A stretch of 24,437 bases of DNA from a virus, in IMG/VR virus record IMGVR_UViG_3300013125_000048, positions 1 through 24,437 of that record; one strand, written 5' to 3'. The notes beneath the pieces are model-generated. The model worked only from the letters and a program-made list of their open reading frames with translations, made no database searches and had not been told where the DNA came from. Positions 3,784-20,022 of this stretch are shown here, in pieces (within the stretch, counting starts at the first letter, position 1; each line of letters starts with the position of its first letter). Both the position numbers and the translations under genes were made by a program.

Positions 3784-4419
3784 ATGAAGAAAAACGATAA
3801 AATCAATGAACTCGAACTTAGGTTCGAAGAACGCACCGGTCAGAATTTCCAAAACTTTTACAAAAATAACAAACCAAAATTAATGTGGCATATTGCTAGA
3901 TATACTAAAGATACGAAAATTGCTGAAGATCATGTTGAAGATGCTTTCATCCAAGCCCTGTTAAATATTAACACATACAAAAGACCCGAAGAAGGTGGTG
4001 CACAGGTTAACACTTGGATATATAAGATCGCAGAAAACATTGTGAAAAAGGCACATAAAGATAGTGAAAGAATACCAACCAACTCATTGGATAAAGAGAT
4101 GGCAGAGAATTTCAAGTTATCTAACTTGATACCATACGATGATGGTAAAAGAAATAATGATGAATATAATATTTTTGTAAAAAAAGCAAATCTTATAAAA
4201 GAAACCATTTATAATTTATCAGAAAAAGACTCTAAATATAAGAAAGTTCTTATTATGAGAGAAATAGAAGGTATGGCCTATAAAGAAATTTCAGAAGAGC
4301 TAAATATAAATCTTTCTACCATTAAATCTCAGATAAAAAAAGGTAGGAATATCATTAAGAAAAAAGTAATGAAGAAATTTCAAGAAATAGATCATAACGG
4401 TAACGAAGATGAAATATGA
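3784..4419 (+). CDS. ECF-like RNA polymerase sigma factor
   Basis: The 211-residue protein has the two-domain plan of small sigma-70 family factors. A region 2 of about residues 25-92 includes helices with AEDHVEDAFIQALLNI and the NTWIYKIAENIVKK segment typical of ECF factors. A region 4 of about residues 145-197 contains LSEKDSKYKKVLIMREIEG followed by the helix-turn-helix YKEISEELNINLSTIKSQIKKG. There is no region 1 or 3. Its length is close to that of ordinary ECF factors (about 180-200). In the cell it would bind host core RNA polymerase and redirect it to phage promoters. T4 uses the divergent sigma gp55 for late genes, and an equivalent role here is possible but inferred. Its own promoter is host-type, so it is probably made early. 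Its stop overlaps the next start (ATGA), implying translational coupling. Confidence 0.85.
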   Translation: MKKNDKINELELRFEERTGQNFQNFYKNNKPKLMWHIARYTKDTKIAEDHVEDAFIQALLNINTYKRPEEGGAQVNTWIYKIAENIVKKAHKDSERIPTNSLDKEMAENFKLSNLIPYDDGKRNNDEYNIFVKKANLIKETIYNLSEKDSKYKKVLIMREIEGMAYKEISEELNINLSTIKSQIKKGRNIIKKKVMKKFQEIDHNGNEDEI

Positions 4420-4722: not shown

Positions 4723-5448
4723 ATGAAAAATAAAAATTATGATTTTTCGTCAAAAAAAGATGAAATAAAAAATATTTTTAATACTACAGACTTTCAAGAA
4801 TATAGAGAAAAACAGAAGAAAAAACAGAAGAGAAAAGAAGATATTTATAAAGTTACTTCTATTGGTAATTCTACCAACACAGTTAGATTTTTAATTCTCT
4901 CTAATATTCTTATATTTATTATAAGCTATATAGTACCTTCAATTGTAACTAACTTTGCTAGTTACAATATCTCAGATGAAAACTTTGCCTTCTATCAGCC
5001 ACTAACATCAATGTTCCTTCATGCCGGTATTATTCATATACTATTTAATATGATAATGCTATGGTCATTTGGAAACCCACTTGAACAAATTATTGGAACT
5101 AGAAAGTTTCTATTTATTTACTTTGTAAGTGGATTAGTATCTGGTATTCTTTGGATGTTATTTGGAACTGGTGCTGCTATTGGTGCATCCGGAGCATTAT
5201 GTGGACTATTATCCACTTTTGTTTTTATTTCACCCGAAACAAAAGTATATCTTTTCTTTGTATTACCTGTAAAAGTTAAGAGTCTGGTTTATGGATTTGC
5301 ATTATTCTCACTCATATTTGGTATACTATCTCTGATAGATCCAGTATTAGGATTTGGAATCGGACACTTTGGACATTTGGGTGGATTGATTGGTGGTTAT
5401 CTAATTACGTTATATTGGTCAAAGAAAAAACTTATTCAAACAGCATAA
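4723..5448 (+). CDS. Rhomboid-family intramembrane serine protease
   Basis: The 241-residue protein has a lysine-rich cytoplasmic N-terminus (residues 1-45) and then about six hydrophobic segments. The rhomboid signatures are all visible: HILFN (His105, Asn109) in the second membrane helix, GASG with the nucleophile Ser156, and GHFGHLGGLIGG with the catalytic His218. The family cleaves membrane-spanning segments of other proteins within the inner membrane. With the dyad and oxyanion residues intact, this copy should be active. It has its own promoter and an AT-only hairpin after the stop, so it is a single-gene unit. A rhomboid is an uncommon cargo for a phage. Substrates are unknown; host envelope proteins or a phage membrane protein are possibilities (inference). 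Confidence 0.92.
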   Translation: MKNKNYDFSSKKDEIKNIFNTTDFQEYREKQKKKQKRKEDIYKVTSIGNSTNTVRFLILSNILIFIISYIVPSIVTNFASYNISDENFAFYQPLTSMFLHAGIIHILFNMIMLWSFGNPLEQIIGTRKFLFIYFVSGLVSGILWMLFGTGAAIGASGALCGLLSTFVFISPETKVYLFFVLPVKVKSLVYGFALFSLIFGILSLIDPVLGFGIGHFGHLGGLIGGYLITLYWSKKKLIQTA

Positions 5449-7136: not shown

Positions 7137-7165
7137 AAAAAAGCCAGTTAAAAACTGGCTTTTTT
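7137..7165. terminator. Bidirectional terminator between convergent genes
   Basis: A perfect 13-bp stem (AAAAAAGCCAGTT and AACTGGCTTTTTT) with an AAA loop is flanked by A and T tracts, so it can stop transcription from both sides. It separates the VWA gene from the convergent HNH endonuclease gene, whose stop codon overlaps it. Confidence 0.85.
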
Positions 7166-8186
7166 ATTTAATTATATCATCAACTATTTTCAATTTGATT
7201 TTAATTAATAATTTTGGCTCATATATCATATTCTTTTTTCTAGAATTTATATATTTTTTTGTAATACATAAATTATCTATTTCACCAATAATCTCTGGTT
7301 TGATGTTATTAACAAATCCGTAATAAATAGGAATCTTATGATCGATTGATGGATATAATCTTGAATTTTTCTTTAATAAAAAATTATTTATTATTAATTC
7401 TCCATCATAATAATCATAACCATTCCATTCTTCAAGTAATTTTTTACTGAACCTTCTACTAATTTTATTCACATCTTTCTTATACAAAAAAAATAAACTT
7501 CGTTCTTGTGAATTAATTATATTTCTAGATTCTAATCTTTTTTTTATTAATTCTGGTACAGATCCATTATGTTTATAACCATATTTTTTCATACAAGTAC
7601 TTTCTGATTTTAATTTATATTCTTCAGTCTTACTATAATTATCAACACCATATTTCTCTATACATGTTTCTTTTCTTTTATTTAAAATAGACTGTTTCTT
7701 ATCCATATCTAAAAATATTCTAATATTAGTTTGTTTTACTTTATTTTTAATATCGTAATTTTCAGAAGCATTTTTATAACCATATCTTTCTACACAAGTA
7801 TTTTCTTTTTTATTTTTTATTTCTTTATTTTGTAAAGAATAATTACAACCATATTTAATATTCATAGTCCTAATCGTTTTTTCCATATTAAAAGAATCAT
7901 CTTTTCCATATCGTTCATTATTTGTAATTTTTGTTTTTTCGAATTTGCAATTACTACATAAATATATATTATTCAATTTTAAACATTTATAATAATCTTG
8001 ATATCTTATACTTTTAATATTTCCACATTTCTCACATTTGCAATTAACTTTCACTCTAGATGAAGGTGTCAAATCATCTACTTTAATTAATAATTCTTTT
8101 CTACACTTTGCATCATAACCTTTATTTATATAATGCATTATACTATGATTGTTTGGCTTAACAAAAACATATTCATCTATTATCAT
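7164..8186 (-). CDS. Free-standing HNH-type homing endonuclease with KYG repeats
   Basis: The 340-residue, lysine-rich protein starts with a zinc-knuckle region (CKCEKCGNIK and LCSNCK, about residues 49-82). It continues with at least five imperfect repeats built on T..(R/K)YG (ERYG, IKYG, ERYGYKN, EKYGVDN, KKYGYKH). It ends in an HNH-like core: IDHKIPIYYGF (Asp282, His283), EIDNLCI (Asn305) and YINSRKKN (Asn314, Lys317). This layout is common in phage-borne homing endonucleases, where the repeats bind DNA and the HNH core cuts. The gene opposes its neighbours and starts inside the stop of a small RHH gene (ATGA overlap). It is probably a selfish insertion that spreads to related phages. Confidence 0.75.
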   Translation of the reverse strand: MIIDEYVFVKPNNHSIMHYINKGYDAKCRKELLIKVDDLTPSSRVKVNCKCEKCGNIKSIRYQDYYKCLKLNNIYLCSNCKFEKTKITNNERYGKDDSFNMEKTIRTMNIKYGCNYSLQNKEIKNKKENTCVERYGYKNASENYDIKNKVKQTNIRIFLDMDKKQSILNKRKETCIEKYGVDNYSKTEEYKLKSESTCMKKYGYKHNGSVPELIKKRLESRNIINSQERSLFFLYKKDVNKISRRFSKKLLEEWNGYDYYDGELIINNFLLKKNSRLYPSIDHKIPIYYGFVNNIKPEIIGEIDNLCITKKYINSRKKNMIYEPKLLIKIKLKIVDDIIK

Positions 8187-9686: not shown

Positions 9687-10592
9687 ATGAAAAAAGTATT
9701 TTTAACAGTAATTGCTTTTTTGACAATTACATCAGCATTCGCTCAGCAAAGTTTCGGTGAGTTCTTTGTAAATAAATTCACACAGGAATATGATAGTCTT
9801 AAGACTTTATGTGCAAGCCTAAATATGGCTTATGTCATGAATCATTTTTGGAGTTCTGATACTTTGAAAAATCCAGATGTTAGTAAACGTATGACTCAAC
9901 TCGGTGCAAATGTTATTCCTAGTGTATTTATTAAAGGATACAAACTCAGTGATAATGATCTATTGAGTTTAGATAAATGGAAAGAAATAGATTCTATTTC
10001 TACTCGTTTTTGTATAACACCATCAGTAAAAAGCAAAATAGAAAGGTTTGCATATATGAATCCACCTCTTAATGTTTTTACTACTTATGTTAATTTATCG
10101 GGTATATATACAGGTGAGATGCATATTGTTGCTATGGTAACGGAAAATTTTCCAGGTACGAAATATATGCATGTAATGCGACAAATTATGTATGACACAC
10201 TATATAATGGCACTGAAATCAAATATTCTATCGCATTTAAAAGTAACTGGACACTTGATAATAGTGAATTAACAATAATTATTGAGGATTCAAATAGAAA
10301 AGTAATTGGTATATCTCAAATACCAATTAGATCAACATTTACAGGAATTGAGAATAACATCGCAGAAAATTCACTCAATCTTTATCCAAATCCAGTTACG
10401 AGTGTGCTAAATATTAGTAGTGGGCATCCAATTGAAAATATTAAAATTTTTGATGCGACTGGTAAACTCCTGGTTTATAAAACATTTAAAGATGAACTAA
10501 CTAAAGAATATAAAATGAACATGAACATTTCATCAGGATTATATTTCATTATCGTGAACAATAATGAGGCTCGAAAAATCATAAAAAAATAA
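9687..10592 (+). CDS. Secreted protein with type IX secretion C-terminal sorting domain
   Basis: The 301-residue protein begins with a typical Sec signal peptide (MKKVFLTVIAFLTITSAFA, cleavage expected after Ala19, before QQ). Its last 75 or so residues match the type A sorting domain of the type IX secretion system: LNLYPNPVTSVLNIS (230-244), ENIKIFDATGKLL (250-262), SSGLYFIIV (282-290) and a basic end KIIKK. In Bacteroidetes this domain directs a protein through the outer membrane, after which it is normally removed. The middle (20-220) has VIPSVFIKG (77-84), like the cis-Pro loop of thioredoxin folds, followed by a beta-rich part, which recalls Omp28-type proteins. The CxxC pair is absent. 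A phage-encoded T9SS cargo is very unusual. The role is unknown; action at the cell surface or outside is expected. Confidence 0.85.
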   Translation: MKKVFLTVIAFLTITSAFAQQSFGEFFVNKFTQEYDSLKTLCASLNMAYVMNHFWSSDTLKNPDVSKRMTQLGANVIPSVFIKGYKLSDNDLLSLDKWKEIDSISTRFCITPSVKSKIERFAYMNPPLNVFTTYVNLSGIYTGEMHIVAMVTENFPGTKYMHVMRQIMYDTLYNGTEIKYSIAFKSNWTLDNSELTIIIEDSNRKVIGISQIPIRSTFTGIENNIAENSLNLYPNPVTSVLNISSGHPIENIKIFDATGKLLVYKTFKDELTKEYKMNMNISSGLYFIIVNNNEARKIIKK

Positions 10593-12019: not shown

Positions 12020-12403
12020 ATGAATAAACTTAATAGTGAAATATTAGAATATTATGAATATTCTATAAAAAGATCAAAAAAAGCGTTAAAAAGAATGAAA
12101 CTTTATTTCATTTGTTCTATAATATTTTCTCTGCTTTATTTATTTTTAATAATTAAAATGATTATCATAAACAAAGATCTATCAGATACAATTAATCTTA
12201 TTAATTTTATTTCATGGAATCTTTGTTTCATTATTTGGTCTTGGGGATTATTTTTTTCTCGTAAATCTATTAAAAAATATAAAATTCAGATCACAAAAGA
12301 TATTCAAAATAGAAATAAAATACTAATAGAGGTAGATCGTCCAAGATATCTAAGAGAAACCAGAATAGATAAACTCAATAAAATAGAAAAGAGAGCCATT
12401 TAG
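12020..12403 (+). CDS. Small membrane protein of unknown function
   Basis: The 127-residue protein has a basic N-terminal stretch (residues 15-28), then two hydrophobic segments at about 29-49 (LYFICSIIFSLLYLFLIIKM region) and 58-80 (INLINFISWNLCFIIWSWGLF), and a basic, helical cytoplasmic tail. This predicts a helical hairpin in the inner membrane with both ends inside. No family recognised. It lies just after a strong terminator, and no good host-type promoter is visible in the short gap, so how it is expressed is unclear. It converges on the heptosyltransferase gene and the stop codons overlap. Confidence 0.6.
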   Translation: MNKLNSEILEYYEYSIKRSKKALKRMKLYFICSIIFSLLYLFLIIKMIIINKDLSDTINLINFISWNLCFIIWSWGLFFSRKSIKKYKIQITKDIQNRNKILIEVDRPRYLRETRIDKLNKIEKRAI

Positions 12404-12412
12404 CTCTCTTTT
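12387..12412. terminator. Bidirectional terminator between convergent genes
   Basis: AAAAGAGAGC (12387-12396) and GCTCTCTTTT (12403-12412) pair around CATTTA. The hairpin contains the stop codons of both convergent genes. Confidence 0.75.
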
Positions 12413-13590
12413 TTCATAAATCTCTTAACAGCATCTATCACATCTTTAGGTAATATAGCTTTAGAGCAAATAAAATCTTGCTTCCTAGGACAAAATAACC
12501 AATCTACTGCATCAAAAGTTATAGATGTGTCATTCCAACATCCATTACAAACATTTGGATTATGAATTCTAATAATATTACTCTGGAACTCATTTGATGG
12601 TTTGGTGAATCCACTTATCATAACCACAGAAGTTCCAACAGCCCAGGATAGCCAAGCCAAACCAGAACTAATTGTAATCATCATTTCAGCATATTTAATA
12701 TCTGTTATTCTATCGCTTAGTGGATAATCTCCAGTTTTATCTATCACATATTTACTTTTAGGTGCTTGATTAAAATATCCAGTTACACCGAAATTCTTAT
12801 ATTTATCAATAATAACAACCTTATAACCATTTCTACCTAAAAAATCAAACAACCTCTCCCAGCCAAAAGGATTATTCCAATATTTTAGTTGAGATGTAGA
12901 TTGAATTGCAACAACAACATACTTACCTTTTATCTTAGGACCATTATCATCAGGTATATTTACCTTAGGTATAATTTCAATATTAGGTAAACCTAATATC
13001 ATATTGCCTATAGATTGCAATGAACAAGTTCTATAATCAAAATATTTGATAACATTATCATACTTTTGATTAGCCACTTTCCAAAGCTCAGGAGCCAGAA
13101 TATTATTAACTCTATAAAGTTCAGGTCCATAATCAATCCTAAATTTCTTGTCTACATCGTTGATATAATCAGGATTAGATACATTAGTAAATTCAATATC
13201 AGGATATGCTTTGTTAAATAGATAATTATGATATGTAAATAATACAACTTTAACATTATTATGTAATTTTCTATATTCTTCAACACAAGGAATCCATGCA
13301 ATGCTATCTCCGAGAGATGTTGAACCTATCAAAATATAGACTCTATTATATTTGTAATTTTGATTTCTCTCAAATATAACTGTATCATTAGATGTTATTC
13401 TAATTGTTATATTTTTATCTTCATTAGTATTAATTTTTGACCAATAATTAACTTTAATTATGGTGGAATATTCAATCGTTCCAGAATTTTCGTCTATAAA
13501 TTCAACAAAATATTCATTTGTATCATCTACATCACCTACGATTTCTAAATAAACGTGATCATCTCTAAATCTAGTAACAAATTGTGTCAT
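12400..13590 (-). CDS. TibC/Aah-like O-heptosyltransferase (GT9-related)
   Basis: The 396-residue protein resembles the bacterial autotransporter heptosyltransferase family, which transfers heptose from ADP-heptose to Ser residues of surface proteins. Visible features: a beta-rich N-terminal domain (1-80), a GT-B core starting at VYILIGSTSLGDSIAWIPCV (the glycine loop of GT9-type enzymes), a donor-domain segment with YVVVAIQSTSQLKYWNNPFG, and MMITISSGLAWLSWAVGTSV, the sugar-nucleotide binding part. The C-terminus has CNGC (348, 351), WLFCPRKQ (367) and Cys375, corresponding to the iron-binding cysteine cluster described for TibC. The enzyme would be cytoplasmic. The acceptor may be a phage or host protein; the beta-structured N-domain could bind it (inference). 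A small upstream reading frame overlaps its ATG. Confidence 0.8.
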   Translation of the reverse strand: MTQFVTRFRDDHVYLEIVGDVDDTNEYFVEFIDENSGTIEYSTIIKVNYWSKINTNEDKNITIRITSNDTVIFERNQNYKYNRVYILIGSTSLGDSIAWIPCVEEYRKLHNNVKVVLFTYHNYLFNKAYPDIEFTNVSNPDYINDVDKKFRIDYGPELYRVNNILAPELWKVANQKYDNVIKYFDYRTCSLQSIGNMILGLPNIEIIPKVNIPDDNGPKIKGKYVVVAIQSTSQLKYWNNPFGWERLFDFLGRNGYKVVIIDKYKNFGVTGYFNQAPKSKYVIDKTGDYPLSDRITDIKYAEMMITISSGLAWLSWAVGTSVVMISGFTKPSNEFQSNIIRIHNPNVCNGCWNDTSITFDAVDWLFCPRKQDFICSKAILPKDVIDAVKRFMKKES

Positions 13591-17052: not shown

Positions 17053-18129
17053 TTATTTAGTTCCAACTAATTGATCATTTTCCATAGTTAAAAATTTAGT
17101 ATTAAAATCAAATCTAACTTGCTCTTCGTGATGTTCACCATCTCTAAGTTTTAAAATTTTTAATCTATATATGTTATTCTTTTTCATTTCTGGATTTCTA
17201 ATAATACCCCACACAGAGTCAGCTGTATCAGCAATAGCTTTACTTTCAGGTATGTCACCAAGTTTAATATCGGATGCACCCCAAACTGCTTTGTCTGTTT
17301 GTGTTGCAGTTACTACTGCACATTCATATTTATCTGCAATTTTTCTTAAACCTTCTGCTAAATGTTTTCCTTTTAAATAAAGCATATTAGTAATATCAAA
17401 GCCTTTTTCAATTGCCATAATGTTTATATAATCTACAATAATCATTCCTACTTTAATCCTTTTAACTTCCTCAAATTTTTTAACATAATTATCTATATCA
17501 GTAACAGTACAATCACTAGTATTGTATTTCTTAACAAAAATTTTACCAGGTTGAGAATCAAATAAATTTCCAACACTAGACTGAGATTTAAGATTATTTA
17601 ATCTTTGCTTCATAAAAACTGCGTCTTTAGATTTTTCATCATATTCATCTGAATTAATCTTAAGACGCATTGAACCCAATCTTTTCATAACCTTTCTTGT
17701 TGCCATTTCTAATGTTATTACTAAAACATTAGCACCCGCATTTGCAGCATTAGTTGCAATATTATGCAACCACATACTATTATGACTTAATATATCATTA
17801 GTATAAAATCTATGATTTATATCGTCTAATTGTAAATCATACATATTAGACTTTATGTTAGTATTATAACATATTTGAACTGATTCTATTCCATTTTTAG
17901 TTATTATTCTATCACCAATTTTTAAATCTTTAATGAAAACTTCATTAAAATATTCATCAAAAACTATATGTGTGTCAGCACAAACTAGTTCTAATTTATC
18001 GGTTTTTAACAACCATTCATCATACTCTATTGTTTTACCAATAGCTTTAATATCAGACCAGCCAGTATCAGTCTCAACTTCCCATTCATCTAATTCTATT
18101 GTATCTATAAACTTTCTATCAAATATCAT
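17053..18129 (-). CDS. C-terminal split intein fused to C-terminal half of gp41/DnaB-like helicase
   Basis: Of the 358 residues, 1-117 are the C-terminal intein piece and 118-358 the helicase. The intein part contains VCADTHIVFDEYFNEVFIKD (about 49-68, the B-block TxxH) and GDRIITKNGIESV. It ends MYDLQLDDINHRFYTNDILS followed by HN (116-117), the standard intein C-terminus, with Ser118 as the +1 residue. The helicase part starts SMWLHNIATNAANAGANVL, which completes the Walker A motif whose GK is encoded at 19408-19413. It includes the Walker B-like KVGMIIVDYINIM and VVTATQTDKAVWG (motif H3). The family unwinds DNA as a hexamer at the replication fork. The piece is inactive unless trans-spliced to the N-terminal half. 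It has its own ATG 9 bases after the endonuclease stop. Confidence 0.9.
   Translation of the reverse strand: MIFDRKFIDTIELDEWEVETDTGWSDIKAIGKTIEYDEWLLKTDKLELVCADTHIVFDEYFNEVFIKDLKIGDRIITKNGIESVQICYNTNIKSNMYDLQLDDINHRFYTNDILSHNSMWLHNIATNAANAGANVLVITLEMATRKVMKRLGSMRLKINSDEYDEKSKDAVFMKQRLNNLKSQSSVGNLFDSQPGKIFVKKYNTSDCTVTDIDNYVKKFEEVKRIKVGMIIVDYINIMAIEKGFDITNMLYLKGKHLAEGLRKIADKYECAVVTATQTDKAVWGASDIKLGDIPESKAIADTADSVWGIIRNPEMKKNNIYRLKILKLRDGEHHEEQVRFDFNTKFLTMENDQLVGTK
17779..18129 (-). other. C-terminal split-intein segment (117 residues)
   Basis: The boundary is set by Ser118 (AGT at 17776-17778) after His-Asn. A C-intein of 117 residues with an N-intein of about 35 is an atypical split near the N-terminus, like the AceL-TerL and VidaL types, and unlike the common split of about 100 plus 35. 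Confidence 0.85.
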
Positions 18130-18138
18130 TTTATTAAT

Positions 18139-19257
18139 TTAATTTTTCAAAAAATCTATACATTGCTGTAAAATTTGTTGTTTTTTTCTATTAAAATCGT
18201 CTTCCCATATTATTAATACATCAAATCCAACTTTTTTAATAGAATTTATCCTTAACTTATCTTTATCCCAAATTTCATAAGCAAACATTTGAAGATACTT
18301 ATGAAAATAATTTGAATTATAATAATTAGGATTACAATGCCAATAATCTCCATTGAATTCAATTATTTTTTTACCAAAAACAAAATCGTAAGAAAAAGTT
18401 CTGCCTAAATCTGAAAAATATCTGAAAAATTGATCATCACCATAATGAACTTTATCTTTTATATCTAAATTATTTGATAAGTAATCAAATAATTCTATTT
18501 CATTTTTAGAATATGGTTCTTTAGTAAATCTTGTAAATTTTCCATTTTTATATAAATCTTCAACCTTAGCACTCCATTTATCCTGCCTATTATTAAAAAT
18601 TTTTAATCCTTCTTCCTCACCATATTTATCAATACATCCTTTTAATGTAAAAGTTCTTTGTCTTTCCTTTATTTTTTCTTTTGCATCATCTTCGGAAAGA
18701 CCTTTTTTAGTCCAATATCCTATTTGAGTTGTATTTATATCTTGATATAATTCTGGATTATTCCTTCTTTTATTCCAAGTTTTTTGATGTATATCATTAA
18801 AAATATCTTCGACTTTTTTCTTTGCCTCCTCTTCTGTATATCCTCTTTTTAACCAAAATTCAATACATTGATGAGATTTTTCCTTAAAAAAATTTTTATT
18901 TCTACTAAAACTTTGATCCAATGATTTTTTTATTTTTTCACCTCGTTCTTTTGCGTTTTGAATTGTTAATAGTAAGGCATCTTTTTTAGATAATCCATAT
19001 TTATACATTAAAAATTCTGGAGTTCCAGTTGCTCTTGTTTTTCCTAAACATTCTTTAGATTTACATATTCTGTGATATCCATTAGATATATCTTTAAATA
19101 TTGCATCATTTCCACAAAAATAACATTTACCTTCGTTTTCCTTTTTAAGATATTTATCATAATAATCTTTCTTAGATACTTCTTTATGTTCTTTAGATAA
19201 ATGAACAGACAAACCAACAATAGAATCAAATTTTTTATCACATAATTTACATTTCAT
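18139..19257 (-). CDS. Vsr-like (EDxHD) homing endonuclease between the split-intein halves
   Basis: The 372-residue protein begins with a C2H2 zinc finger (CKLC, His19, His24) and a second zinc site (CYFC at 45-48, Cys65, Cys70). Helical repeats of the type EFWLKRGYTEEEAKKK and YWTKKGLSEDDAKEK, with KYGEEEGLKIFNNRQDKW, follow and probably bind DNA. The nuclease domain (about 248-372) has SKNEIELFDYL (Glu253/255), SYDFVFGKKIIEFNGDYWHC (Asp291, Glu300, His307) and a terminal FDVLIIWEDDF, which fits the very-short-patch-repair fold. Nucleases of this group were described inside fractured genes with split inteins. It would cut uninterrupted helicase genes at the insertion site and so spread the locus. 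It has its own start, outside the intein reading frame. Confidence 0.85.
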   Translation of the reverse strand: MKCKLCDKKFDSIVGLSVHLSKEHKEVSKKDYYDKYLKKENEGKCYFCGNDAIFKDISNGYHRICKSKECLGKTRATGTPEFLMYKYGLSKKDALLLTIQNAKERGEKIKKSLDQSFSRNKNFFKEKSHQCIEFWLKRGYTEEEAKKKVEDIFNDIHQKTWNKRRNNPELYQDINTTQIGYWTKKGLSEDDAKEKIKERQRTFTLKGCIDKYGEEEGLKIFNNRQDKWSAKVEDLYKNGKFTRFTKEPYSKNEIELFDYLSNNLDIKDKVHYGDDQFFRYFSDLGRTFSYDFVFGKKIIEFNGDYWHCNPNYYNSNYFHKYLQMFAYEIWDKDKLRINSIKKVGFDVLIIWEDDFNRKKQQILQQCIDFLKN

Positions 19258-19299
19258 ATCTATATTTTTATTTCTATATATAAAATAAGAGAGACCAAT

Positions 19300-19509
19300 T
19301 TAGGATTTTTTATTTTTCATTAAATTAAAAAAATCACCGATAGTAATTTCCTTTATTTCACCTGTTTTTTTGCTTTTAATTCTTATAGGAGTATCTGATT
19401 TTGAGCACTTACCAACATTAGTTTCTTCCATTATCACATTTAATGCTGATCCAATCCCAATTCCACCAACTATAGAATCTATACTAAAACAAGCAGTTGG
19501 AATACTTTG
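19300..19509 (-). CDS. End of helicase N-half with P-loop start, plus N-terminal split intein
   Basis: Directly after the in-frame TAA at 19510-19512, the same frame stays open for 69 codons. The first 34 are helicase (QSIPTACFSIDSIVGGIGIG, then SALNVIMEETNVGK), ending in the GK of Walker A. The next 35 start with Cys (19405-19407) and read as an N-terminal intein: CSKSDTPIRIKSKKTGEIKE, then ITIGDFFNLMKNKKS and TAA at 19300-19302. The match at both sides of the break (GK here, Ser in the C-half) shows the exact insertion point. If the upstream TAA is real, this part is not translated from the normal start. An in-frame ATG at 19429-19431 could still give a 43-residue peptide carrying the N-intein. 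Confidence 0.85.
   Translation of the reverse strand, partial: QSIPTACFSIDSIVGGIGIGSALNVIMEETNVGKCSKSDTPIRIKSKKTGEIKEITIGDFFNLMKNKKS
19303..19407 (-). other. N-terminal split-intein segment (35 residues)
   Basis: It begins with the nucleophile Cys1 and contains the A-block pattern (DTPIRIKSK, GEIKEITIGDF). The intein B-block is absent here and is found on the C-terminal piece, which defines the unusual split position. Confidence 0.8.
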
Positions 19510-20022
19510 TTAACTTCCTTGTCCGTTATCTGATTCAAGACCATCAAAATCTTCACCCAAATCTTGATCATCATCATCAACTAAAAGCACATTATTAAAC
19601 ATAGTTTTGGTTTTTTGTGCAATTTCTGTAACATCATCATAATCAATCTCATCTATTCCACGAATCATATCGATCATCTTTAACGCATCGCCTTTTAATT
19701 GATTTTTGATTTTCCACGCTTTAAATCTAGGTGATAGCCATTCTTGGCTAATATCTGCATTATCTGACTGAAGAAGTAACTTAATAACTTTATCATTAAT
19801 TTTATTATCTTGATCAGCAAGTTTAACCATTGAATAAATTTGCTGTGGACTGGGTATTATATGGCTTTCGCTTTTGATATACTCATCTCTAATAACTGTG
19901 TATATAAACTGTATATCAGAATTTCTAAAGAAAAATGGTTCAACCTTAGAAAACTGCTCTGGATTATCTAATATATGGATAAAGTAGTGCTTTTCCATAT
20001 TTGTATTCATTGCTTCTGCCAT
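19510..20022 (-). CDS. N-terminal domain of gp41/DnaB-like replicative helicase
   Basis: The 170-residue frame is the N-terminal part of the helicase, as shown by continuity with the P-loop segment after the TAA. It is helical (FIYTVIRDEYIKSESHIIPS; the following part resembles the DnaB N-domain), then a linker region KMIDMIRGIDEIDYDDVTEI, and an acidic stretch DDDDQDLGEDFDGLESDNGQ before the stop. In helicases of this family the N-domain forms the collar of the hexamer and contacts primase. The acidic linker leads into the ATPase domain, which begins after the TAA. Taken as is, the product would lack the whole motor. It follows the uvsX stop by 43 bases and precedes the intein parts. Confidence 0.8.
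   Translation of the reverse strand: MAEAMNTNMEKHYFIHILDNPEQFSKVEPFFFRNSDIQFIYTVIRDEYIKSESHIIPSPQQIYSMVKLADQDNKINDKVIKLLLQSDNADISQEWLSPRFKAWKIKNQLKGDALKMIDMIRGIDEIDYDDVTEIAQKTKTMFNNVLLVDDDDQDLGEDFDGLESDNGQGS

What the first reader, a model, noticed from the sequence alone, without database searches (positions are those of the whole stretch)
17053..20022. Fractured replicative helicase with an atypically split intein and an embedded EDxHD homing endonuclease
The helicase is broken exactly between Lys and Ser of Walker A. Cys1 of an N-intein follows NVGK, and the C-intein ends in HN before SMWLHNIA. The two intein parts are about 35 and 117 residues, so the split lies near the N-terminus, before the B-block, unlike ordinary split inteins. 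A complete Vsr-like endonuclease gene with zinc fingers sits between them with its own start. Fractured genes with split inteins and EDxHD nucleases, and atypically split inteins such as AceL-TerL and VidaL, are known, mainly from metagenomes. This is a clear example with all parts in one locus, and its sequence is probably new.
Basis: partly seen in the sequence, partly recalled or inferred. Interest (0 to 1): 0.92.

Follow-up and report, generated by a model that had tools for sequence, protein, structure and literature searches.

The report
Phage helicase gene split by intein
A phage DNA-unwinding enzyme is encoded in two pieces that a split intein should join at the protein level, with a DNA-cutting enzyme gene lodged between them; this is a known kind of mobile element, but some of its relatives hide the cutting enzyme in a second reading frame of the intein itself.

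Summary
On the minus strand a DnaB-like phage helicase is broken inside Walker A (NVGK|SMWL) by a 35-residue N-intein and a 117-residue C-intein, with a 372-residue endonuclease gene between them. The IntC model best matches the VidaL intein (TM 0.81); the nuclease domain matches Vsr and the homing endonuclease I-Bth0305I. Relatives have the helicase uninterrupted. It is a new member of a published kind: fractured genes with atypically split inteins.

It lies in a 115-base stretch holding all 25 differences from an otherwise identical 83-kb contig that is open there. The changes ignore codon position, so I read them as corruption of this contig.

Relatives sit at GK|S/T of four ATPases: terminase, helicase, clamp loader, SbcC-like. 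The surprise is there: in eight distinct terminase inteins (plus one relic) both halves form one frame, and the endonuclease is encoded over the linker in the +1 frame. The intein frame has 0 stops where 14-23 are expected. In seven of the eight the endonuclease ATG lies inside the intein motif IG[KDE]FY. My paper searches found no such intein; the nearest precedent, ShiLan, is not an intein.

The parts
19510..20022 (-). N-extein: first 170 codons of the helicase N-part, ended in this contig by an in-frame TAA (19512-19510)
   Evidence: 97% identical over residues 1-168 to the twin L002, whose frame is open
19427..19541 (.). 115-base stretch holding all 25 differences from the twin contig; read as corrupted
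19408..19509 (-). rest of the N-extein, 34 codons ending in Walker A NVGK
19303..19407 (-). N-intein (IntN), 35 aa beginning with Cys1; stop codon follows
   Evidence: N-intein profile hits in relatives
18139..19257 (-). homing endonuclease gene, 372 aa: N-terminal C2H2-like zinc finger (weak matches) and C-terminal Vsr/I-Bth0305I-like nuclease domain
17779..18129 (-). C-intein (IntC), 117 aa ending in HN
17053..17778 (-). C-extein: helicase from Ser of Walker A to the stop, 241 aa

Best explanation
A mobile cassette made of a split intein and a homing endonuclease sits in the P-loop codons of a phage replicative helicase. The helicase is made as two proteins, N-extein-IntN and IntC-C-extein. 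IntN docks onto IntC, completes a HINT fold, and the Cys1 / Ser+1 / terminal Asn chemistry joins NVGK to SMWL, restoring Walker A (inferred from intein chemistry). The endonuclease, made from its own start, cuts helicase alleles that lack the insert, and repair from the occupied allele copies the cassette (inferred). Shown here: the site, the parts, the folds, the conserved residues, and empty alleles in relatives. The extra stop in this contig's N-extein is local corruption of the sequence.
For: Parts and junctions. Empty homologous sites; L093 is 94.6% identical in the C-extein protein but empty. IntC fold: VidaL TM 0.81, rmsd 1.1; profile hits to gp41-1, Cat, VidaL, NrdJ-1; H54, D98 and N117 invariant in 69 IntC. 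Single-chain homologues in cultured phages Det7 and VP-1. Endonuclease fold: Vsr Z 11.3, I-Bth0305I Z 10.6. IntN is preceded by GK in 102 of 104 places where one was found. Mobility: host label on the IntC tree needs 8 changes; occupied and empty terminase alleles in one sample. Twin contig open.
Against: No activity test. NCBIfam's C-terminal splicing model scores 11.7 bits, under its cut-off of 15.6. The endonuclease finds no Vsr or I-Bth0305I chain by sequence; Foldseek's best E is 0.025, and two mitoribosomal proteins reach Z 9.9 and 9.4. In the window as given the N-half would not be made whole.
Confidence: 0.9

Rival explanations
1. Maxi-intein by stop readthrough: IntN, endonuclease and IntC lie in one frame and are sometimes translated as one precursor that splices in cis.
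For: In the twin L002 the three are in one frame with only 2 stops across 1278 nt.
Against: In L003, whose endonuclease is 91% identical, the intein frame between IntN and IntC has 23 stops. In L085 and L086 the endonuclease is reduced to a remnant, IntC is in another frame than IntN, and the intein is still split.
Confidence: 0.05
2. Dead remnant: the helicase is broken for good in this phage and the cassette is decaying.
For: The in-frame TAA and 18 nonsynonymous codon changes in the window's N-extein.
Against: The twin is open; the other 24,322 bases are identical; IntN, endonuclease and IntC are intact.
Confidence: 0.04
3. The segments are ordinary helicase domain sequence and not an intein.
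For: The curated C-terminal splicing model is under its cut-off.
Against: Empty homologues, intein fold, the same element in three other ATPases.
Confidence: 0.01

Closest known systems
Fractured genes with split inteins and Vsr-like (EDxHD) homing endonucleases, Dassa et al. 2009 (not held; content recalled; title seen in reference lists)
   Same: Phage enzyme gene broken by a split intein with a free-standing Vsr-like endonuclease gene between the halves
   Different: This sequence and phage; split near the intein's N-terminus. Whether that paper lists this helicase site could not be checked
AceL-TerL, GOS-TerL and Cat atypically split inteins (PMC13014065 and PMC11766414, passages)
   Same: Short IntN (25, 37 and 30 aa against 35 here), long IntC (104, 115 and 104 against 117); split after the first helix
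   Different: Those are in terminase, this one in a helicase; GOS-TerL has Ser1/Cys+1, this one Cys1/Ser+1
VidaL intein (PDB 6vgv; passages in PMC13014065)
   Same: Best fold match of IntC (TM 0.81, 28% identity); atypically split
   Different: IntN of 16 aa, split after the second strand
Cultured-phage cases: Tenacibaculum phage PTm1 DNA polymerase (annotation); Vibrio phage Va1 terminase; MIJ3 DNA polymerase B (PMC6892783, passages)
   Same: Host gene split at an intein with an endonuclease at the break
   Different: Other host genes or sites; in Va1 the endonuclease is fused in frame to the IntC half; MIJ3's is described as HNH
ShiLan domain (PMC11855218, abstract and passages), nearest to the overprinted relatives
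   Same: Endonuclease encoded out of frame within an insertion that stays open in the host frame
   Different: HNH type in a methylase, and its authors found no intein or intron; here the insertion is a recognisable intein in terminase and the nuclease is Vsr-like

Membership tests
Class 1 intein | Cys/Ser/Thr at position 1 and +1, conserved block-B His, terminal His-Asn | tested here: met
   Cys1, Ser+1, HN; H54 and N117 invariant, H116 at least 90% in 69 IntC
Class 1 intein | HINT fold | tested here: met
   IntC model pLDDT 92.1, VidaL TM 0.81; IntN and IntC not modelled together
Class 1 intein | insertion absent from homologues, host sequence continuous | tested here: met
   six empty sites
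Class 1 intein | splicing activity | not testable with these tools
   needs expression of both halves
Atypically split intein (split after the first helix) | separate short IntN and long IntC ORFs, break N-terminal of block B | tested here: met
   35 and 117 aa; in single-chain homologues the same halves are joined by a linker at that place
Fractured gene with EDxHD endonuclease | host gene in two ORFs with a free-standing endonuclease gene between | tested here: met
   all 21 distinct helicase elements by the script's criteria, two with only an endonuclease remnant
Vsr-like / EDxHD homing endonuclease | Vsr / I-Bth0305I nuclease fold | tested here: met
   Z 11.3 and 10.6 for residues 231-372; Foldseek ranks I-Bth0305I first at E 0.025
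Vsr-like / EDxHD homing endonuclease | conserved acidic/His nuclease residues | tested here: met
   D291, E300, H307 invariant in 40 members and at least 90% in 71; assignment to the E-D-x-H-D pattern is recalled
Vsr-like / EDxHD homing endonuclease | site-specific DNA cleavage | not testable with these tools
   needs purified enzyme
DnaB/gp41-type phage helicase | DnaB C-terminal ATPase domain with Walker A | tested here: met
   PF03796 E 6.5e-18, phrog_19 E 8.2e-44
Overprinted intein (relatives only) | IntN and IntC in one open frame with the endonuclease in another frame between them | tested here: not met
   for the window cassette: parts separated by stops; met in L079, L193, L290, L294, L296, L298, L315, L339

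The most novel reading that the evidence does not exclude
The family to which the window's cassette belongs includes inteins that carry their homing endonuclease out of frame. In eight distinct elements the terminase-intein frame runs uninterrupted through a whole Vsr-like endonuclease gene written in the +1 frame, and in seven of them its start codon lies inside an intein sequence motif. Selection keeps the second frame free of stops, so the same element exists split, contiguous and overprinted, contiguous with a relic, and contiguous without endonuclease. This is a natural series for how genes become fractured, or are rejoined, around a homing endonuclease.
Probability: 0.85. Interest if true: 0.75.

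Novelty: new member of a known kind. Interest (0 to 1): 0.5.

Why it matters
The window (with its open twin) adds a complete helicase example of an atypically split intein with a natural 35-aa IntN, and 21 distinct helicase elements are now in hand for trans-splicing tools. More important is what the relatives show: one intein family at the P-loop GK|S/T of four ATPases and in several architectures, including contiguous inteins with an overprinted endonuclease. That makes the question of how split inteins and fractured genes arise, and whether the break can be undone, testable with natural intermediates.

Tried and rejected
Adenine-directed mutagenesis for the 115-base stretch: rejected, the changes start from all four bases. 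Diverged natural allele: rejected by the codon-position pattern. A 26-base pattern from the stretch has no exact match in viral contigs. No tRNA, tmRNA or Rfam match above threshold in the window, so no recognised intron. The endonuclease found no Vsr or I-Bth0305I chain by sequence; only the fold comparison did. A scan with the L193 endonuclease returned only L193. In the phage collection no record covers 80% of the L079 or L298 intein frame, so no cultured phage with an overprinted element was found. The single genome-contig scan gave 13 loci, none of them overprinted by the script's test. Direction of change between split, contiguous and overprinted is not resolved: the IntC trees have few columns and many open forks. 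On the first (82 rows) a split/contiguous label needed 3 changes. On the second (104 rows: the first set less two long rows, plus 24 new loci that I chose by hand) the overprinted label needed 5, at least 2 forced. No structure of an overprinted intein was predicted; both jobs went to the window's IntC and endonuclease.
Full report
What is there. The window is a 24,437-base IMG/VR record. On its minus strand a helicase gene is broken by a split intein with an endonuclease gene in the middle: N-extein 20022-19408, IntN 19407-19303, endonuclease 19257-18139, IntC 18129-17779, C-extein 17778-17056. The C-extein is a DnaB-like helicase (Pfam DnaB_C E 6.5e-18; phrog_19 E 8.2e-44). The break is between Lys and Ser of Walker A, NVGK|SMWL.

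The N-extein frame is stopped by TAA at 19512-19510, 34 codons before IntN. The whole window aligns base for base, without gaps, to 20972-45408 of the 83-kb contig 3300013137_000010. The two differ at 25 bases, all between 19427 and 19541, and the 83-kb contig is open there, with the DPESHKQ...GGGW sequence that its close relatives share. Substitutions fall 10/10/5 on codon positions 1/2/3 and 18 of 19 changed codons are nonsynonymous, whereas six relatives differ from the twin mainly at position 3 and all six are closer to the twin than to the window. I read the stretch as corruption of this contig; reads would decide.

Is it an intein. Six uninterrupted homologues (L090, L091, L092, L093, L094, L097) go straight from GET[NG]VGK to SMW. 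L093 is 94.6% identical to the window's C-extein in protein but empty. In 69 aligned IntC, H54, D98 and N117 are invariant and A51, D52, S115 and H116 among the nearly invariant. The IntC model (pLDDT 92.1) finds VidaL first (TM 0.81, rmsd 1.1, 28% identity) and the engineered atypically split Cat intein second. A profile search of PDB sequences gives gp41-1, Cat, VidaL and NrdJ-1 inteins; NCBIfam's C-terminal splicing model stays under its cut-off (11.7 against 15.6 bits). tblastn of IntC finds 307 of 50,697 phage records. In Salmonella phage Det7 and Vibrio phage VP-1 the homologous intein is one chain in the terminase, IntN and IntC joined by a linker. The split therefore falls after the first helix, the position described for AceL-TerL and GOS-TerL (PMC13014065, passages); GOS-TerL's parts are 37 and 115 aa (PMC11766414, passages).

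Is the middle gene a homing endonuclease. By sequence it is weakly like MTES_1575 (E 0.006, below Pfam's cut-off; 23 of 40 family members match it at E 0.01 or less) and like phrog_22677 of unknown function (37 of 40). Its model (pLDDT 91.8, pTM 0.49) has a C-terminal domain for which Foldseek ranks I-Bth0305I first, at only E 0.025, and VIA-align gives Vsr Z 11.3 (rmsd 3.7, 124 aligned), I-Bth0305I Z 10.6 (rmsd 2.2, 93 aligned) and a putative endonuclease, 3hrl, Z 10.5; two mitoribosomal proteins reach 9.9 and 9.4. D291, E300, G303 and H307 are invariant in 40 aligned members and present in at least 90% of 71. The name EDxHD is recalled and appears in PMC12350094 (passages).

The family. Scans with the endonuclease (268 relatives, best 80 kept), with IntC-helicase (25 relatives, 24 loci) and with terminase relatives, together with seven regions of annotated phage records, gave 89 distinct elements by IntC and C-extein sequence. 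By C-extein similarity they fall into groups of 57 (TerL, one or more at a Walker B site), 21 (helicase), 4 (SbcC-like), 3 (clamp loader), 3 (another TerL site) and 1 too short to class. PHROG matches of ten C-exteins agree: TerL for seven (for L290 the best match is a homing endonuclease family and TerL comes next), clamp loader for L039, SbcC-like for L163 and L055. An N-intein was found for 104 of 169 IntC places in 162 overlapping loci; 102 of the 104 follow GK of Walker A and the two others (L073, L191, one contig, score 7.6) are doubtful. A pattern search found the SbcC-like N-parts after GK too (L163, L169, L170, L055). All 21 helicase elements have IntC on its own ORF with an endonuclease match upstream by the script's criteria; in L085 and L086 this is only a C-terminal remnant, yet the intein is still split. 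L099 (TerL) is split with no endonuclease match. Loss of the endonuclease thus does not by itself rejoin the gene. The cassette moves between hosts: on the IntC tree the helicase label needs 5 changes, at least 2 forced by starred branches (few columns, many open forks). In one sample, occupied L193 and empty L199 terminase alleles share flanks of 94.5% (2817 bp, ending at the base before Cys1) and 98.8% identity (1529 bp).

The window's own frame. In the twin, IntN, endonuclease and IntC are in one frame with two stops between. In L003, with an endonuclease 91% identical, the frame differs (23 stops). A readthrough maxi-intein is possible but not favoured.

Overprinted relatives. In L079 the terminase-intein frame runs open through IntN, about 300 residues, IntC and terminase, while the endonuclease lies over the same DNA in the +1 frame. 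Synonymous shuffling of the endonuclease gives 19.1 stops on average in that frame and never fewer than 8; the real sequence has 0. L193 is a second case (0 against 18.0). A scan with the alignment of L079, L193, L194 and L195 (262 relatives, best 80 kept) raised the number to eight distinct elements with an uninterrupted endonuclease ORF: L290/L299, L294, L296/L297/L323, L298/L300/L301/L302/L303/L360 (L323 and L360 cut by contig ends), L315, L339, L079, L193. The ninth, L194 (same contig as L324), keeps only 96 residues of endonuclease frame (0 stops against 4.0, fraction 0.0015-0.0018). Expected stops for the eight are 14.2-22.9, and no shuffle reached 0 (5,000 each). In all nine the endonuclease is in the +1 frame. 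In seven of the eight, and in the relic, the endonuclease ATG lies in the IntN codons of the motif IG[KDE]FY, 79 nt after the first base of Cys1, with GGAG upstream (GGAA in L296); in L079 it is at 55 nt, in TGEIY, with GGAG. The script mislabelled IntN of L294; its Cys1 is at 4001. Between near relatives the substitutions fall mainly on endonuclease codon position 3 (L298/L300: 4, 3, 24; endonuclease identity 0.97 against 0.91 for the intein frame), so the endonuclease looks to be under purifying selection and the intein-frame linker is the looser partner. Against an active nuclease in all of them: relative to the window, position 304 is D, E, I or T, and seven of the eight have S for E253, E for D333 and lack W330 and W351, as do the non-overprinted L102 and L087 in part (L102 keeps D333); in L079 the alignment puts a gap at D291, though that does not. 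Several split terminase members start their endonuclease at the same ATG inside IntN: of 39 distinct IntN loci 13 have ATG there and 9 of these open at least 200 codons (the 9 include the overprinted L193 and near-duplicates L050/L052 and L101/L104). Split and overprinted forms thus differ mainly in whether the intein frame stays free of stops. The overprinted label needs 5 changes on the tree, at least 2 forced, so origin and direction are open. Splicing of these inteins and translation from the internal ATG are inferred.

Prior art. Out-of-frame HNH endonucleases in a phage methylase, without an intein, are published (ShiLan, PMC11855218, abstract and passages). Searches for an intein with an overprinted or out-of-frame endonuclease showed no other in their listings (capped listings; library limited to open PMC papers; Dassa 2009 not held). 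Fractured genes and atypically split inteins are well known (PMC10189870 abstract and three sections).

Setting. One protein of the window carries a T9SS sorting domain (TIGR04183 E 1.3e-10). With no clear ribosome site before the endonuclease and IntC ATGs this suggests a Bacteroidota host (inference). The helicase C-part is 63.7% identical to an uncultured 735-kb phage, LR756501.

Verdict. Observation confirmed, interpretation supported, new member of a known kind; the overprinted relatives are the part a specialist would find surprising.

Noticed in passing
window 19427-19541: All 25 differences from an otherwise identical 83-kb contig fall in this stretch, substitutions only, with a stop codon: probable local corruption of the contig.
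   Followed up: yes
L079 1830-2783, L193 2897-3799, L290 4080-4913, L294 4080-5018, L296 4080-4916, L298 4080-4916, L315 4080-4916, L339 4080-4916: Vsr-like endonuclease genes encoded in the +1 frame over a contiguous terminase intein; 0 stops in the intein frame against 14.2-22.9 expected.
   Followed up: yes
L366 1649-5066 (Vibrio phage Va1): Cultured phage terminase split at another site; the endonuclease is fused in frame to the IntC half in one 776-aa ORF annotated as terminase.
   Followed up: partly
L085 3777-4351 and L086 3765-4351: Helicase inteins whose endonuclease is reduced to a C-terminal remnant but which remain split.
   Followed up: partly
window 7164-8186 minus: A second putative homing endonuclease gene (DUF7487 E 3.7e-25; phrog_3339 homing endonuclease E 1.8e-12).
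   Followed up: no
window 9687-10592 plus: Protein with a type IX secretion C-terminal sorting domain (TIGR04183, E 1.3e-10), suggesting a Bacteroidota host.
   Followed up: partly
window 4723-5448 plus and 12400-13590 minus: A rhomboid protease (Pfam E 3.3e-31) and a protein matching an O-heptosyltransferase model (TIGR04414 E 1.9e-76) in a phage record.
   Followed up: no
L050 4709-5020 and L052 3364-3675: A second, contiguous intein in the same terminase at a Walker B site (CNLLYLDEF), beside the split one at Walker A.
   Followed up: no
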